From positions 1,364,001-1,428,000 of the forward strand of contig NZ_BMGT01000002.1 in NCBI RefSeq assembly GCF_014640335.1: a stretch of 64,000 nt of DNA. Reading direction: 5' to 3'. This document shows positions 19,685-24,588 of this stretch, piece by piece. How positions within the stretch are numbered: position 1 is the first letter of the stretch; each line of letters starts with the position of its first letter. Source of the stretch: Edaphobacter dinghuensis. GTDB lineage: Bacteria > Acidobacteriota > Terriglobia > Terriglobales > Acidobacteriaceae. Position numbers and translations under genes: made by a program. The notes beneath the pieces were generated by a model that searched no databases, was not told where the DNA came from, and was given only the letters and a program-made list of their open reading frames with translations.

Positions 19685-22564
19685 ATGTCCGACGCGAAAA
19701 CAGAGAAGACCACCGCCGAAAAGCCGCCCATCTACCTCCTCGACAGCATGGCCTTCATCTTCCGCGCCTATCACGCCATGCAGCGCCAGCGACCCATGTC
19801 CACGCGCACCGGCATCCCCACCGCGGCGACGTATGTCTTCGTCAATATGATCAACAAGCTGCGCAAGGACTTCCAGCCCCACTACCTCGCAGCCGTCTAT
19901 GACCTCTCCGGCCCCGTCTTCCGCGACGAGCGCGCCAAGGAGATGAAAGGCGTCAAAAAGTTCAACATCAAGACCCAGCAGTTCGAGGTCATCGACTACG
20001 CAGGCTACAAGGCCAACCGCGCCGAGATGCCGCAGGACCTCGCCCAGCAGCTTCCCTTCATCCGCCGCGCCCTCGAAGCCTTCCGCATCCCCATCCTCAG
20101 CTACGAGGGCTTCGAGGCCGACGACGTCATCGGCACGCTCTCCTCGAAGCTCTCCGAGCTCGGCCACAAGGTCTTCGTCGTCTCCTCCGACAAGGACATG
20201 ATGCAGCTCGTCAACAACGGCGTCTCCATCCTCAACCCCACGAAAGACAACCTCATCCTCGACCCCGCCGGAGTCGAAAACATTCTCGGCGTCCCTCCCG
20301 AGCGAGTCATCGACGTGATGGCACTGCGCGGCGATGCCATCGACAACATCCCCGGCGCACCCGGCATCGGCGACAAAGGCTCGGTCGAACTCATCCAGCA
20401 GTTCGGCACCGTCGAAGCCGCGCTCGACCGCGCCGAAGAGGTCAAGAAAAAAACGTATCGCGAATCGTTACAAAATAATCGCGAAAATATTCTGCTCTCC
20501 AAAGAGCTCGTCACCATCCACACCGGCGTCCCCATCGAATTCAGCATCGAGGACATGCTCACCCAGCCTATCGACAACGCCGCCAGCCGCGAGCTCTTCT
20601 CCGAGCTAGAATTCACCACGCTGCTCAAAGAGCTGGCCCCCGCCGTCGACAACACGCCCATCGCATACATCACCAAACCAACACACGAGCAGATAGCCTC
20701 TCTCCTCACCGAAGCCCGCACCATCGACAAGGTCACCGGCAAACCCCACGGTCTCGCACTGGCCATCTTTGAAGACGCCCGAGCCATCGCCGAAGAGATC
20801 GCCGCCGAACCCAGCGAAGACTCCGCCGAACCCGAACCACCGCCCGCCGAAAACCTCTCCCTCTTCGGCGCACCCGAAGCCACAAAACCGGGTGCCCCAG
20901 GTCCCGATTCTGAGACCTGGGTTTCCACCGAGGCATCCACCGACGCAGCCTGCCAACTGGGCCTAGCCGTCGACTCACACACCGCCATCGAAGTCCCCCT
21001 CGACGCTCCCGGCATCAAGGAAGCCCTCCTCGACGCCGAGCTTCCCAAAGACGTTCACGACCTCAAAGCCGTCCACCGCGCACTCCAACCCCACGGCATC
21101 ACGCTCGCCGGAGTCCGCGACGACGTCATGCTGCTCAGCTACCTCGTCAATCCAACCCACGGATCGCACACTCTCGCCGACGTCACCGCCCGCTTCACCA
21201 ACCGCGCCCTCGCGCAGGTCACCAAAGGTGTCGTCTCCAAAGACCTCCTGCCCGAAGCCTCCAACGCCGTCCAACGCCTCGCTCCCATTCTCCGCGCCGA
21301 AATTGAAACCTCAAACGTTACAAATGTCTACGACACCATCGACCTCCCTCTCGTAGCCGTTCTCCTCCGCATGGAGCAAGCCGGAGTCCGCATCGATCCC
21401 ACCGTCCTCAACGACATGTCCAACCGCCTCGTCATTGAGATCGACAACCTCGCCGAGCGCATCTACGCCGAGGCAGGCTCCGCCATGGGCAGCGACTCCC
21501 CGCATCGCTTCAACATCAACTCCCCCAAACAGCTAGGCGACGTCCTCTTCAACAAGATGAACCTCCCCAAGCCGATGAAGTATGGCAAGGGCAAGGTAGT
21601 CTCCACAGCACAAGACGTCTTGGAAGAACTGGCCGAAAGCCACACCACCCCGGCCCTCGTCCTCGAATACCGTCAGTTCGCCAAGCTGAAGAGCACCTAT
21701 CTCGACCAGCTCCCCAACCTCGCCGATCGCGAAGGCCGCATCCACACCACCTTCAACCAGGTAGGCACAGCCACCGGACGCCTCTCGTCCACCAATCCCA
21801 ATCTGCAAAATATTCCCGTCCGCACCGCTGTCGGTCGCGAGATCCGCGCCGCCTTCATCGCCGCGCCCGGCAACGTCCTCATGTCGGCGGACTACTCACA
21901 AATAGAACTTCGCCTCATGGCGCACTTCTCGCAAGACCCCCTTCTGCTCGACGCCTACCGCACCGGCAAGGACATCCACACTCTCACCGCAGCCGAGGTC
22001 TTCGGCGTCGATGCCGCGACCATGGACAAAGAAACCCGCAACCGCGCCAAGGCCGTCAACTTCGGCATCGTCTACGGCATCAGCCCCTTCGGTCTCGCCG
22101 CTCAACTTGGCATCGACCAGAAGACCGCGAAGCAATACATCGAAACCTACTTCGAGCGCTACGCCGGTGTCCGCCGCTTCATCGACGAGACCCTCGAAAC
22201 CGTCCGCCGCGACCAAGCCGTTCGCACCTACTTCGGACGCGTCCGCCCCATCCCCGACATCCAATCGCGCAATCCCAACATGCGCGGCTTCGCCGAGCGC
22301 ACTGCCGTCAACACGCCGCTGCAAGGCACCGCAGCCGACCTCATCAAACTAGCCATGCTCCGCATCGACCAGGCTCTCCGCGACCGCAAGCTCAAATCGC
22401 AGATGACCCTTCAGGTCCACGACGAACTCCTGTTCGACGTAGTCCCCGAAGAAGCCGAGGAGCTGCAAAAGCTGGTCAAGCACGAGATGGAACACGTGGC
22501 CGAATTCACCGTCCCCATCATCGCCGATGTAGGCATCGGCCAGAACTGGCGCGACATCAAGTAG
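19685..22564 (+). CDS. polA: DNA polymerase I (proofreading domain apparently inactive)
   Basis: The 959-residue protein has an N-terminal 5'-3' exonuclease domain (about residues 10-310; LLDSMAFIFRAYHAM, EADDVIG, SSDKDMMQL, GAPGIGDKG). A degenerate central domain follows. The C-terminal family A polymerase has motif A (ADYSQIELRLMAHFS), the O-helix (RNRAKAVNFGIVYGISPFG) and motif C (LQVHDELLFDV). The central region keeps exonuclease-II-like sequence (HDLKAVHRALQPHG) but no DxE exonuclease-I motif, so proofreading is probably lost. It also carries a Pro/Glu-rich insert that contains a translated palindromic repeat (20889-20921). The last 31 bases, including two bases of the stop codon, are duplicated 752 bases downstream. 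Confidence 0.93.
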   Translation: MSDAKTEKTTAEKPPIYLLDSMAFIFRAYHAMQRQRPMSTRTGIPTAATYVFVNMINKLRKDFQPHYLAAVYDLSGPVFRDERAKEMKGVKKFNIKTQQFEVIDYAGYKANRAEMPQDLAQQLPFIRRALEAFRIPILSYEGFEADDVIGTLSSKLSELGHKVFVVSSDKDMMQLVNNGVSILNPTKDNLILDPAGVENILGVPPERVIDVMALRGDAIDNIPGAPGIGDKGSVELIQQFGTVEAALDRAEEVKKKTYRESLQNNRENILLSKELVTIHTGVPIEFSIEDMLTQPIDNAASRELFSELEFTTLLKELAPAVDNTPIAYITKPTHEQIASLLTEARTIDKVTGKPHGLALAIFEDARAIAEEIAAEPSEDSAEPEPPPAENLSLFGAPEATKPGAPGPDSETWVSTEASTDAACQLGLAVDSHTAIEVPLDAPGIKEALLDAELPKDVHDLKAVHRALQPHGITLAGVRDDVMLLSYLVNPTHGSHTLADVTARFTNRALAQVTKGVVSKDLLPEASNAVQRLAPILRAEIETSNVTNVYDTIDLPLVAVLLRMEQAGVRIDPTVLNDMSNRLVIEIDNLAERIYAEAGSAMGSDSPHRFNINSPKQLGDVLFNKMNLPKPMKYGKGKVVSTAQDVLEELAESHTTPALVLEYRQFAKLKSTYLDQLPNLADREGRIHTTFNQVGTATGRLSSTNPNLQNIPVRTAVGREIRAAFIAAPGNVLMSADYSQIELRLMAHFSQDPLLLDAYRTGKDIHTLTAAEVFGVDAATMDKETRNRAKAVNFGIVYGISPFGLAAQLGIDQKTAKQYIETYFERYAGVRRFIDETLETVRRDQAVRTYFGRVRPIPDIQSRNPNMRGFAERTAVNTPLQGTAADLIKLAMLRIDQALRDRKLKSQMTLQVHDELLFDVVPEEAEELQKLVKHEMEHVAEFTVPIIADVGIGQNWRDIK
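20889..20921 (+). repeat. GGGTGCCCCA-type palindromic repeat inside polA, copy 2
   Basis: The leader CGGGTGCC is followed by an 8-bp stem (20896-20903 with 20914-20921) and a loop. It is in frame within polA and encodes KPGAPGPDSETWV in a Pro/Glu-rich linker of the inactive proofreading region. It has the same structure as the intergenic copies at 18441, 26098 and 57512 (inverted). Confidence 0.7.
22533..22563 (+). repeat. 31-bp direct repeat, copy 1 (3' end of polA)
   Basis: These are the last ten codons of polA (encoding GIGQNWRDIK from its second base on) plus the first two stop-codon bases. An exact copy lies at 23285-23315. The two copies bracket the nuclease gene at 22570-23316. Confidence 0.95.
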
Positions 22565-22569
22565 CCGCC

Positions 22570-23316
22570 ATGAGAATAATTACTTGGAACTGCCAAGGTG
22601 GCTTTGTAAATAAGAAGAAGGCAGCAGAGGTCTTTGCAACAGATCCTGACATTGCGATTATTCAGGAATGTTCGGAAGGAGACGCCAAACCGATTCATCA
22701 TAAAGGCTATTCGAGCTTATGGTTTGGCGACGCCTCGACAAAAGGTCTAGCGGTTTTCTACAAATCTCAGTGGAAACTTCATCCACTGCCGCAGCCGAGC
22801 CATCAATGGATTGCTCCCATTGATGTAAGAGGTCCCGAAAACTTTACCTTGATCGCGATTTGGGCTTGTGCGGTAAAAGGCAATGCACGGGAGAGTTATA
22901 TAGGAGTGATCCATCGCGCACTGACCGCCCATCCAGAATGGTTTGATCGTGGCCCAGTCGTTATGGCTGGTGACTTCAACAGCAATAGCCAGTTGGACAG
23001 GAAACATTCAGGCAACAATCATTCTTCTTTAGTTGCGCTGCTGGAAACTCATCAACTAATAAGTACCTATCATTTTCATCATAAGGAAGAACAAGGAAGA
23101 GAATCGCGACCTACTTTCTACCTGTACAGGCAAAGTAATACGACTCTTCATCTCGACTATATTTTTATGCCCAGCGCATGGACGGAGCGACTGAACTACT
23201 TCGAGCTGGGCGATTTTGCTCTATGGTCCAACCACAGCGACCATAGCCCGCTACTGATCGACATTGCTCCATCCGAATCTCCGAGCATCGGCCAGAACTG
23301 GCGCGACATCAAGTAA
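22570..23316 (+). CDS. Endonuclease/exonuclease/phosphatase (EEP) family protein with a polA-derived tail
   Basis: The 248-residue protein has the EEP (DNase I-like) active-site pattern: TWNCQG with Asn7, IIQECS with Glu33, GDFNSNS, LDYIFM and the terminal SDHSP histidine motif. These residues bind a divalent metal and cut phosphodiester or phosphomonoester bonds; the substrate is unknown. No signal peptide is seen. Base composition and codon use are visibly AT-richer than polA, which suggests transfer. The last residues, SIGQNWRDIK, are a copy of the polA C-terminus, in the same frame and with a stop at the same place. So the gene's own end has been replaced by duplicated polA sequence. It starts six bases after the polA stop, with no clear ribosome-binding site, so translation may be coupled. 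Confidence 0.85.
   Translation: MRIITWNCQGGFVNKKKAAEVFATDPDIAIIQECSEGDAKPIHHKGYSSLWFGDASTKGLAVFYKSQWKLHPLPQPSHQWIAPIDVRGPENFTLIAIWACAVKGNARESYIGVIHRALTAHPEWFDRGPVVMAGDFNSNSQLDRKHSGNNHSSLVALLETHQLISTYHFHHKEEQGRESRPTFYLYRQSNTTLHLDYIFMPSAWTERLNYFELGDFALWSNHSDHSPLLIDIAPSESPSIGQNWRDIK
23285..23315 (+). repeat. 31-bp direct repeat, copy 2 (3' end of the EEP gene)
   Basis: Exact copy of 22533-22563. It supplies the last ten codons and most of the stop codon of the EEP gene. The sequence after it (TAAGGCCG) may be the original downstream flank of polA. Confidence 0.95.
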
Positions 23317-23414: not shown

Positions 23415-24146
23415 TTGGGCAACTGGAACAACTTCTCGAATACGCTGAACGGATACGGCTACTCCGTACAGATGCCGCCCGGTTTTATGTCGACGCCGCT
23501 CGACCCCATGAGCGGCGGATGCTTCGCGTGGCCTCTGGGATCAACGCCGCCGCCCGGCAGTCCTGCGCTGGTCTGGCTTCTGCCCATCATGCCCGGTTAC
23601 CTGCCCGGTCTGATACAGCACTACTACAACTTCGACAACCCGATGATCGCCAACTTCAACGCGCAGAGCCTTGGCCTGATGAGCGTGACCCGCATCGCTC
23701 CCCTGCGTCAGACCACTCTGAACGGTGCCTCGGCGCTGATCCGAGAGTTCGATGCCATGTCCCTCGGTGCAGAACCCATTCGCATGAGCGCCATGCTGTT
23801 GCAGGGGCCTTACTCTGCGCTGCAATGCATCGCTGGCGTCAATCTCTATCGCTGGGTCGAGTTCGCCGGTCCTACCCTTCAGTTCGTCGCGAACGTTCAG
23901 ATGAACGGAACCTATGCCACTCCGAGCCAGGTACGCACCCTCATCGATAAAAACAACCTGAACCATGTAGAGATGCAGGTGGTCAACGCCGACCAATCCC
24001 AGGTGACGCCCATCATGAACCTGCCAACCTCGGTCGGAGGAGCGCAGGTCTTCGAGATACACGTGCAGGCTGGCGGCACCATCTCCTTCGGCGACGTCAA
24101 AGGAACCAACGTTCAGATTGGCGATCACAATAGCCAGCCGCACTAG
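23415..24146 (+). CDS. Hypothetical cytosolic protein with C-terminal amyloid-like (RHIM/PP-like) motif
   Basis: The product is 243 residues with no signal peptide. The body begins GYSVQMPPGFMSTP and later has TTLNGASALIREFDAMSLGA and SAMLLQGPYSALQCIAGVNL. This order of strands loosely recalls PsbP/LpqN-like folds, but I do not assign the family. The tail, residues 223-241, reads ISFGDVKGTNVQIGDHNSQ. The core NVQIGDHN resembles the (V/I)-Q-(V/I)-G-x-x-N amyloid core of RHIM and bacterial PP motifs. The next gene has the same motif at its N-terminus. The start is taken as TTG at 23415 with GAGG upstream; ATG at 23472 is an alternative. It lies directly after the EEP insertion. Confidence 0.65.
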   Translation: MGNWNNFSNTLNGYGYSVQMPPGFMSTPLDPMSGGCFAWPLGSTPPPGSPALVWLLPIMPGYLPGLIQHYYNFDNPMIANFNAQSLGLMSVTRIAPLRQTTLNGASALIREFDAMSLGAEPIRMSAMLLQGPYSALQCIAGVNLYRWVEFAGPTLQFVANVQMNGTYATPSQVRTLIDKNNLNHVEMQVVNADQSQVTPIMNLPTSVGGAQVFEIHVQAGGTISFGDVKGTNVQIGDHNSQPH

Positions 24147-24198
24147 CCATACCCGGGCCCACACACAAAAAGAGAGCTGCAAAAAGGAGATCTCGATT

Positions 24199-24588
24199 AT
24201 GTCGAACATCAAAATGGGCAACGTCTCCGGAACCAATCTTCAGGTTGGCGACAACAACACGCAGAACATCACCATCAACCAACAGGACCGCGACCAGATC
24301 GCCAGCCTGCTCAACTCCCTCCATCAGCAGATTCAGCAAGCCCCCATCCCCGAGCAGGCGAAGCAGGCGATCACGCAACAAGTGCTGCCCACCATGCAGG
24401 AGGCCGTCAAACAGCCCGATCCCAAACCCGGGCTGACACAAGGGCTGGAGCATCTCAACGCCAATCTGCAAAAGGCCAACACCGCAGCGAGTTCCGTCTC
24501 CGAAATCGTAGGAACCGTATCGAAGATCGCAGGCATCATCGGCATCGGCGTAAAGGTAGTCGCACCATTTTTAGCTGGCCTCTTGTAG
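24199..24588 (+). CDS. Small protein with N-terminal amyloid-like (RHIM/PP-like) motif and C-terminal hydrophobic helix
   Basis: The product is 129 residues. Residues 4-22 read IKMGNVSGTNLQVGDNNTQ, nearly the same as the tail of the preceding protein. The middle is a Gln-rich helical segment (RDQIASLLNSLHQQIQQAP). A Pro-rich linker and a second helix follow, then a hydrophobic C-terminus (IVGTVSKIAGIIGIGVKVV then APFLAGLL) that could insert in a membrane. Small bacterial proteins of this plan, with a GDxNTQ motif, two helices and a hydrophobic end, are known to me as uncharacterised. A signalling or membrane-effector role is inferred. The ATG at 24199 has AAGGAG ten bases upstream. It sits 52 bases after its neighbour, probably co-transcribed. 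Confidence 0.75.
   Translation: MSNIKMGNVSGTNLQVGDNNTQNITINQQDRDQIASLLNSLHQQIQQAPIPEQAKQAITQQVLPTMQEAVKQPDPKPGLTQGLEHLNANLQKANTAASSVSEIVGTVSKIAGIIGIGVKVVAPFLAGLL

What the first reader, a model, noticed from the sequence alone, without database searches (positions are those of the whole stretch)
23415..24588. Adjacent genes share a RHIM/PP-like amyloid motif, at the C-terminus of one and the N-terminus of the other
Seen: residues 223-241 of the first protein (ISFGDVKGTNVQIGDHNSQ) and 4-22 of the second (IKMGNVSGTNLQVGDNNTQ) agree at most positions, while the rest of the two proteins is unrelated. Known: RHIM and related bacterial/fungal motifs have a (V/I)-Q-(V/I)-G-x-x-N core and propagate amyloid from a sensor to an effector, often encoded by neighbouring genes. 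Inferred: the first protein may be a sensor or carrier, and the second, with a hydrophobic C-terminal helix, a membrane-active effector. No NLR/STAND gene is seen here, so this would be a simpler or different layout.
Basis: partly seen in the sequence, partly recalled or inferred. Interest (0 to 1): 0.82.

Follow-up and report, generated by a model that had tools for sequence, protein, structure and literature searches.

The report
Two-gene motif-sharing module without NLR
Two neighbouring bacterial genes carry the same short peptide, like those used in amyloid signalling, occur together, and one resembles part of a phage-defence protein, so they may form a minimal cell-death relay without the usual receptor; no experiment has tested this.

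Summary
P1 (23415-24146) residues 223-241 and P2 (24199-24588) residues 4-22 match gaplessly, 11 of 19 identical (E 9e-6); nothing else in the two is alike. The pair is a module: of 200 genomes of the order, P1 and P2 occur in the same 8, adjacent, in several chromosomal sites; a ninth copy, on a contig labelled Phycisphaerales, has both in one open frame. A motif profile finds exactly two strong places in each of the nine genomes, P1 and P2; no NLR carrier appeared. The profile scores a published, Congo-red-positive BASS3 (RHIM-like) peptide above all 5000 shuffles; Pfam RHIM hits stay below cut-off. P1 is predicted to have the PsbP/MOG1-type fold (also EagT6, DcrB). P2 is disordered at the motif, then helical with a hydrophobic end; motif and first helices are homologous to the tail of a plasmid AbiTii abortive-infection protein and to defence candidate PDC-M14B. 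Best reading: an NLR-free two-protein motif relay, perhaps for defence by cell death, with motif polarity reversed from NLR/Bell systems. Amyloid formation, toxicity and the direction of signalling are untested; P1 as chaperone or antitoxin of P2 is the main rival.

The parts
23415..24146 (+). P1: 243-aa protein, TTG start, PsbP/MOG1-like predicted fold plus small beta region, C-terminal motif
   Evidence: relatives in 8 of 200 order genomes; model pLDDT 84, pTM 0.81; Foldseek to PsbP, EagT6, DcrB
23442..23891 (+). P1 residues 10-159, PsbP/MOG1-like domain (approximate limits)
   Evidence: limits are my reading of the predicted secondary structure
24081..24137 (+). P1 motif, residues 223-241 (ISFGDVKGTNVQIGDHNSQ); modelled as short strands 222-225 and 232-236 around a turn; last residues disordered
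24184..24189 (+). Shine-Dalgarno-like AAGGAG before P2
   Evidence: sequence
24199..24588 (+). P2: 129-aa protein, N-terminal motif, helices, hydrophobic C-terminal end
24208..24264 (+). P2 motif, residues 4-22 (IKMGNVSGTNLQVGDNNTQ); pLDDT under 50 in the model
24280..24582 (+). P2 helical part, residues 28-128 (helices 28-47, 52-70, 75-92, 97-114 and two short ones); up to about residue 83 it aligns with an AbiTii tail
24526..24582 (+). P2 hydrophobic C-terminal segment, residues 110-128
   Evidence: A122, P123, F124 invariant in 9 of 9 members

Best explanation
P1 and P2 form a self-contained two-protein relay. P1, probably cytosolic, has a PsbP/MOG1-like fold and a RHIM/BASS3-like strand-turn-strand motif at its C-terminus. 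P2 carries the matching motif at its N-terminus, then helices related to the tail of an AbiTii abortive-infection protein, then a hydrophobic end. When P1 meets its trigger (unknown; perhaps a phage product or membrane damage), P1 motifs cluster and template P2 motifs by homotypic cross-beta stacking; crowded P2 puts its hydrophobic end into the membrane and stops growth. Shown by computation: the motif pair, its exclusivity, the gene coupling, the motif's likeness to BASS3, the predicted fold of P1, the kinship of P2 with an AbiTii tail over motif and first helices. Inferred: amyloid-type assembly, P1 as trigger side, membrane action, defence.
For: Co-occurrence and adjacency in 8 of 8 carrier genomes among 200, in at least five different gene surroundings by my reading (G072 and G180 share theirs). 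Tight coupling: gaps of 11-52 nt in five genomes, a 4-nt overlap in G072, G081 and G180, one open frame of 412 codons with an internal AAGGAG and ATG in L028. Same glycine spacing G-x3-G-x5-G in 16 of 16 aligned copies. Exactly two strong motif places per genome, P1 and P2, in 9 of 9 genomes; next best E 0.02 or worse. Partner motifs agree in kind: phi-Q-phi-G-D-x-N in both proteins of 4 genomes, phi-(A/V)-phi-G in both of 5; with 5 lineage representatives no other of the 120 pairings scores as high as the true one by BLOSUM62, 2 of 120 (the true one included) by identities. The BASS3 peptide of PMC8086366 (section 13 read) scores 13.2 bits, 0 of 5000 shuffles reach it; the three other peptides of that table are not distinguished from their shuffles. 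P2 and the tail of AbiTii protein WP_172686057.1: BLASTP E 2e-7, P2 3-76; P2 profile E 2.3e-12 in a set of 21 proteins; hhalign probability 90, E 1.5e-6. PDC-M14B is matched by 8 of 8 P2 and by that AbiTii tail.
Against: No amyloid, toxicity or phage assay exists. In 5 of 9 pairs the RHIM glutamine is replaced. In 4 of the 5 pairs of the A/V class the partner is not the best match, so the agreement may rest on one or two ancestral changes; on the 14-residue core alone 5 of 120 pairings reach the true score. A9 recognises the motif in 1 of 12 AbiTii proteins read, so motif and tail need not act together. The AbiTii kinship covers P2 to about residue 83 and not its hydrophobic end; AbiTii ends are less hydrophobic (best 19-residue mean in the last 45 residues 0.27-1.85 in 12 proteins, 1.19 in WP_172686057.1, against 2.07 in P2). 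The module is rare (P1 in 8 of 398 family genomes; P2 in 3 of a phylum sample of 396), stands among non-defence genes here, and P1 was not found in viral contigs or plasmids. All Pfam hits of P2 are below cut-off.
Confidence: 0.42

Rival explanations
1. P1 is a chaperone or antitoxin of P2. Its PsbP/Eag-like domain covers the hydrophobic end of P2, the shared motif is a docking tether, and P2 is a membrane toxin set free when P1 is lost.
For: P1's model matches three EagT6 entry chains at E 1.5e-4 to 4.2e-4; Eag chaperones stabilise transmembrane parts of effectors (start of abstracts of PMC7773334 and PMC12881460 seen in a listing). A Tse3-Tsi3 complex chain also matches, E 2.4e-3. Order and tight coupling fit toxin-antitoxin operons.
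Against: TM-scores with EagT6 are low (0.26-0.32 on the query, 0.41-0.51 on the target) and PsbP-like folds have many jobs; in L028 both are in one open frame, odd for a labile antitoxin; a chaperone of this type needs no shared motif; the tested neighbours include no secretion gene.
Confidence: 0.25
2. The motif is a non-amyloid beta docking element: P1 and P2 pair through strands in a small stable complex with some other role.
For: In P1 the motif is predicted as two short strands around a turn; only three glycines are invariant over 16 copies, which suits any beta-arch; Q is replaced in 5 of 9 pairs.
Against: Kinship of P2 with a defence-protein tail and a defence candidate; likeness to BASS3; rare distribution.
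Confidence: 0.23
3. The pair belongs to a classical NLR amyloid signalosome whose receptor lies elsewhere in the genome.
For: BASS motifs are typically shared by an NLR N-terminus and a Bell C-terminus (PMC7889193, passages read).
Against: No third motif copy in any of nine genomes at the sensitivity of A9; no NLR among eight neighbours scanned with Pfam.
Confidence: 0.05
4. Chance similarity or a local duplication without function.
For: In the window 6 of 9 codons for identical residues are identical between the two motifs, as a recent exchange could give.
Against: Pair and both motifs persist down to 28% (P1) and 32% (P2) identity to the window, under purifying selection.
Confidence: 0.02

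Closest known systems
NLR-associated bacterial amyloid signalling with BASS3 (RHIM-like) motifs (Dyrka et al. 2020, not read; described in PMC7889193, passages read, and PMC8086366, section 13 and passages read)
   Same: Adjacent genes share a short RHIM-like motif at protein ends; one partner is a small helical protein with a hydrophobic part; the motif profile recognises the published BASS3 peptide.
   Different: No NLR; motif C-terminal on a PsbP-like protein and N-terminal on the helical one, the reverse of NLR N-terminus and Bell C-terminus; Q replaced in 5 of 9 pairs.
AbiTii abortive-infection proteins (PF18864), e.g. WP_172686057.1
   Same: P2 3-76 aligns with its tail, motif included; profile comparison agrees over motif and first helices.
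   Different: P2 has no AbiTii domain; its hydrophobic end is not part of the alignment and is stronger; the plasmid gene has no P1-like neighbour among the annotated features shown; A9 finds the motif in 1 of 12 AbiTii proteins.
PADLOC phage-defence candidate PDC-M14B
   Same: 8 of 8 P2 match its C-terminal part (best E 2e-7).
   Different: P2 lacks the first ~155 positions, whose nature I could not see. The model rings in 1 of 14 control genomes (Methanosarcina acetivorans), 0 of 61 relatives (E 1e-6) and 0 of 149 genomes of G781's phylum (E 1e-5); at these cut-offs carriers of P2 itself (G000, G035, G781) are missed too.
PsbP / Eag / DcrB, MOG1-type fold
   Same: P1 model: best Foldseek E 1.4e-5; of 21 chains at E 0.001 or better, 8 are named PsbP and 3 belong to the EagT6 complex entry; DcrB at 2.6e-3. 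That these share one fold class is recalled.
   Different: TM-scores only 0.26-0.60; no sequence family above cut-off; extra beta region and motif tail; no signal peptide apparent (my reading).
RHIM (PF12721)
   Same: phi-Q-phi-G core in 4 of 9 pairs; 3 of 16 copies hit the model.
   Different: Below the curated cut-off; the residue before the core is N, A or V where Q is kept, not G as in the RHIM/PP core given in PMC7885112 (passages read).

Membership tests
BASS3 / RHIM-like amyloid signalling motif | phi-Q-phi-G core followed by D-x-N | tested here: inconclusive
   Met in both proteins of 4 of 9 pairs, window included; A or V in place of Q in 5 of 9
BASS3 / RHIM-like amyloid signalling motif | Recognisable against a published BASS3 peptide | tested here: met
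   One peptide, 13.2 bits, 0 of 5000 shuffles reach it; three other peptides of the table not distinguished, among them a BASS3-resembling Methanothrix one
BASS3 / RHIM-like amyloid signalling motif | Pfam RHIM curated cut-off | tested here: not met
   3 of 16 copies hit, best 14 bits against 20, E 0.038; whole P1 and P2 give no RHIM hit
BASS3 / RHIM-like amyloid signalling motif | Forms cross-beta fibrils and seeds the partner | not testable with these tools
   Needs peptides
NLR-associated amyloid signalosome | Same motif in two proteins of adjacent genes | tested here: met
   9 of 9 loci, in L028 within one frame
NLR-associated amyloid signalosome | One partner is an NLR with the motif at its N-terminus | tested here: not met
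   No third motif copy in nine genomes; P1 and P2 have no NLR domain; eight neighbours scanned are not NLRs
NLR-associated amyloid signalosome | Effector carries the motif at its C-terminus (Bell layout) | tested here: not met
   Motif is N-terminal on the helical protein
AbiTii | AbiTii domain PF18864 | tested here: not met
   No hit for P2; present in the plasmid relative, E 1e-41
AbiTii | Tail of motif plus helices, as in WP_172686057.1 | tested here: met
   BLASTP E 2e-7 over P2 3-76; hhalign probability 90; C-terminal part of P2 not aligned
PsbP/MOG1-like fold | Three-dimensional fold | tested here: met
   Predicted model pTM 0.81; Foldseek best E 1.4e-5, TM-scores 0.26-0.60; no sequence hit in solved structures
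Toxin-antitoxin pair | One product toxic, the other neutralises it | not testable with these tools
   Needs expression

The most novel reading that the evidence does not exclude
A bacterial amyloid-type signalling relay that needs no NLR: a PsbP/Eag-fold protein templates, through a private RHIM-like motif, a free-standing relative of the AbiTii tail that acts on the membrane. AbiTii-type proteins with a motif would then be the fused, and this pair the split, form of one motif-driven abortive-infection design.
Probability: 0.28. Interest if true: 0.82.

Novelty: new variant of a known kind. Interest (0 to 1): 0.62.

Why it matters
A review of the field asks whether bacteria have signalling amyloids in pathways that do not depend on NLRs (PMC7889193, outlook section, passage seen). 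This pair is a compact, testable candidate: two short motifs, two small proteins, no other carrier found in the genome. The AbiTii link would also suggest what the tail of a classic abortive-infection family does; the mode of action of the Abi proteins was called largely enigmatic in PMC3710099 (passage).

Tried and rejected
NLR elsewhere in the genome: disfavoured. Chance: rejected. SIR2 kinship: 2 of 8 P2 matched PADLOC SIR2 models; a search for that model hit 25 of 297 phylum genomes; of the 15 loci fetched none matched the motif or P1 profile at E 1 and two gave only E 0.46 and 0.52 with the P2 profile; I read most as SIR2 genes beside a HerA-type ATPase, without a family scan; dropped. 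P2 in solved structures: sequence E 0.34 or worse, Foldseek best E 0.32, no fold claim; the PedB match (TM 0.78 on its own length, E 0.89) is what any four-helix bundle could give. P1 by sequence in solved structures: none. Motif profile in solved structures: none. Bacillus_HBL hit of P2: below cut-off, not used. Viral contigs: 46 and 34 candidate stretches, no relative of P1 or P2. Plasmids: none for P1; none for the window's P2 even at E 10; for two relatives only weak places, one of which led to the AbiTii protein. A Nonomuraea place lay in a region that I read as respiratory-complex genes, no relative. Empty-site test: in 16 other same-genus genomes with a polA end held, no P1 or P2 in the DNA after it (about 1.5 kb in 14, 1.3 kb in L071, 0.2 kb in L078); my polA query was out of frame, but one search confirmed that the loci hold the polA end. 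One search gave a wrong hydropathy for the AbiTii protein (only the first line of its file was read); one search gives the right one. Literature; among the listed papers I saw no description of this pair; only listings were seen except for the papers named, one search listed 8 of 1,389, and the library lacks most subscription journals. 'amyloid signaling' + 'Acidobacteri' + 'NLR' gave 0 papers.

Full report
Observation. P1 starts with TTG; two same-genus relatives begin at the same conserved place, with TTG (G035) and GTG (G060). BLASTP aligns P1 223-241 with P2 4-22, 11 of 19 identical, E 9e-6; the next match is E 7.

The pair is a module. A search of 200 genomes of the order found P2 in 8 and P1 in 8, the same ones, adjacent in each. 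A profile of P1 found it in 8 of 398 genomes of the family; a profile of P2 found it in 3 of a phylum sample of 396. So the module is rare and patchy. Surroundings differ: polA and a FAD-linked oxidase in G000, G035 and G060; other genes in G034, in G198, in G081, and a shared set in G072 and G180 (my reading of the gene lists). The gap between P1 and P2 is 52, 40, 41, 11 and 23 nt in G000, G035, G060, G034 and G198, and a 4-nt overlap in G072, G081 and G180 (positions). A ninth copy, L028, is on a contig titled Phycisphaerales; there P1 and P2 form one open frame of 412 codons with an internal AAGGAG and ATG, the two motifs 44 residues apart, so P2 may be made both fused and alone. That contig comes from the same metagenome series (GL140) as the G034 contig, so its taxon label may be wrong.

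The motif is private to the module. I aligned 16 motif copies into A9: 8 of the 9 pairs; G060, whose motifs equal those of G035, was left out. Only three glycines are invariant, with spacing 4 and 6 in P1 and P2 alike. On the window's genome A9 finds P2 (1.2e-11), P1 (2.3e-10) and then hits from 0.06 up. On the eight other genomes it finds exactly two strong places each, P1 and P2, then hits from 0.02 up. The weak hits look to me like an AMP-binding ligase, a glutamate synthase and other unrelated frames (no family scan). As A9 is made of these copies their own scores prove nothing, but a third carrier with a like motif should have shown; a strongly diverged one would not.

Partner motifs agree in kind. 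In G000, G035, G060 and G034 both proteins read phi-Q-phi-G-D-x-N; in G198, G072, G081, G180 and L028 both read phi-(A/V)-phi-G. G034 has VQFGDHN in both proteins. Summed BLOSUM62 over true pairs is 462 against a permutation mean of 328 (9 pairs, near-identical ones included; 10 of 100,000 shuffles reach it); with 7 representatives 4 of 5040 orders reach it, with 5 representatives 1 of 120, the true one; by identities 2 of 120; on the 14-residue core 5 of 120. Against this, in the A/V class the partner is the best match in 1 of 5 (G198); in the Q class G034 is best, G035 and G060 tie, G000 is one point below its sisters. The agreement could rest on one or two ancient changes.

What the motif resembles. 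The BASS3 effector-side peptide of Frankia, Congo-red positive, is printed in PMC8086366 (section 13, read). A9 scores it 13.2 bits, above 5000 of 5000 shuffles; the sigma peptide, the Methanothrix NLR-side peptide that resembles BASS3, and the non-aggregating peptide of the same table are not distinguished from their shuffles. Pfam RHIM is hit by 3 of 16 copies, best E 0.038 and below cut-off; one copy hits the curlin repeat at E 0.011. PMC7885112 (passages) gives the RHIM/PP core as G-phi-Q-phi-G; here the first G is N, A or V wherever Q is kept. I call it BASS3-like, not a proven member.

P1. No family above cut-off in Pfam, NCBIfam or PADLOC. The AlphaFold2 model from six sequences has pLDDT 84 and pTM 0.81. 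Foldseek gives 21 solved chains at E 0.001 or better: 8 named PsbP, 3 of the EagT6 entry, the Jonesia protein 3lyd, Apa, BT_1490, a Pseudomonas PA94 protein and photosystem-complex chains; DcrB and a Tse3-Tsi3 chain follow at 2-3e-3. TM-scores are 0.26-0.60, so a fold class is likely and no closer kinship is claimed. The motif end is modelled as strands 222-225 and 232-236; block pLDDT falls from 78 to 69 over residues 211-240 and to 34 at the end.

P2. The model has pLDDT 76; residues 1-24 are below 50; four long helices follow, and the hydrophobic end 110-128 spans the end of the fourth and two short ones. The best 19-residue hydropathy mean is 1.42-2.13 in nine members. PDC-M14B is matched by 8 of 8 members. 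A weak tblastn place of the L028 P2 (E 0.4-2 in this plasmid group) led to WP_172686057.1, a 293-aa plasmid protein; 29 of 106 plasmid records with a match hold it at 90% identity or more. It is an AbiTii protein (E 1e-41, residues 4-185). Its tail begins with HFGDVSGSQIQIGSNS and goes on into a stretch like the first helices of P2. P2 matches it by BLASTP (E 2e-7); in a set of 21 proteins the nine-row P2 profile matches it at E 2.3e-12 and A9 at 1.1e-5; a profile of seven AbiTii tails matches P2's profile with probability 90, E 1.5e-6, over motif and first helices. The same tail matches PDC-M14B. Ten further proteins read here, eight of L103 and one each of L104 and L105, are AbiTii by Pfam (10 of 10); with WP_172686057.1 and L106 (not scanned) that makes 12, of which A9 recognises one and the P2 profile six at E 0.02 or better. 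AbiTii ends are less hydrophobic than P2's: 0.27-1.85 in 12 proteins. AbiTii is a known abortive-infection domain, fused in places to HEPN domains (PMC3710099, passages); one relative on a Rhizobium plasmid lies beside an Abi-family gene and near a CBASS cyclase.

How it most likely works. Shown by computation: two proteins, one private motif, tightly coupled genes, and a P2 whose motif and first helices are those of a defence protein's tail. Inferred: P1 gathers on a trigger, motifs stack, P2 is crowded and its hydrophobic end enters the membrane. The main rival reverses the sign: P1 as an Eag-like chaperone or antitoxin that hides the P2 end. Sequence alone does not decide between them.

Novelty. 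The kind, RHIM-like motif sharing between neighbours in bacteria, is known; different are the lack of an NLR, the reversed polarity, the PsbP-like partner and the AbiTii-type helices. PMC7889193 names NLR-independent signalling amyloids in bacteria as an open question (passage). My ten literature searches showed no description of this pair in their listings, with the limits of that library.

Noticed in passing
window 22533-22563 and 23285-23315, around 22570-23316: A perfect 31-bp direct repeat made of the end of polA flanks an endonuclease/exonuclease/phosphatase gene, whose protein therefore ends with polA's own last residues. The gene is absent at this place in G035 and G060, and a 51% relative follows polA in another same-genus genome (L071): it looks like insertion at the polA 3' end.
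   Followed up: partly
L103, 1315-14746 (Aeromonas plasmid pAER-f909): Eight AbiTii genes (Pfam, 8 of 8) within 13.5 kb on one plasmid, mixed with small genes and with rather similar tails; the tblastn search counted 10 places in this record.
   Followed up: partly
L028, 4950-6188: P1 and P2 in one open frame with an internal ribosome-binding site and ATG, which could make a fused and a short product from one gene.
   Followed up: partly
L105, 2851-8750 (Rhizobium plasmid pColt5.8d): An AbiTii gene lies between an Abi-family gene and an AAA ATPase followed by a CBASS-like set (cyclase, SAVED), a compact defence island.
   Followed up: no
L048-L062: PADLOC model SIR2 PDLC04094 hits 25 of 297 sampled genomes of the phylum; in most of the 15 loci fetched the gene stands beside what I read as a HerA-type ATPase.
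   Followed up: no
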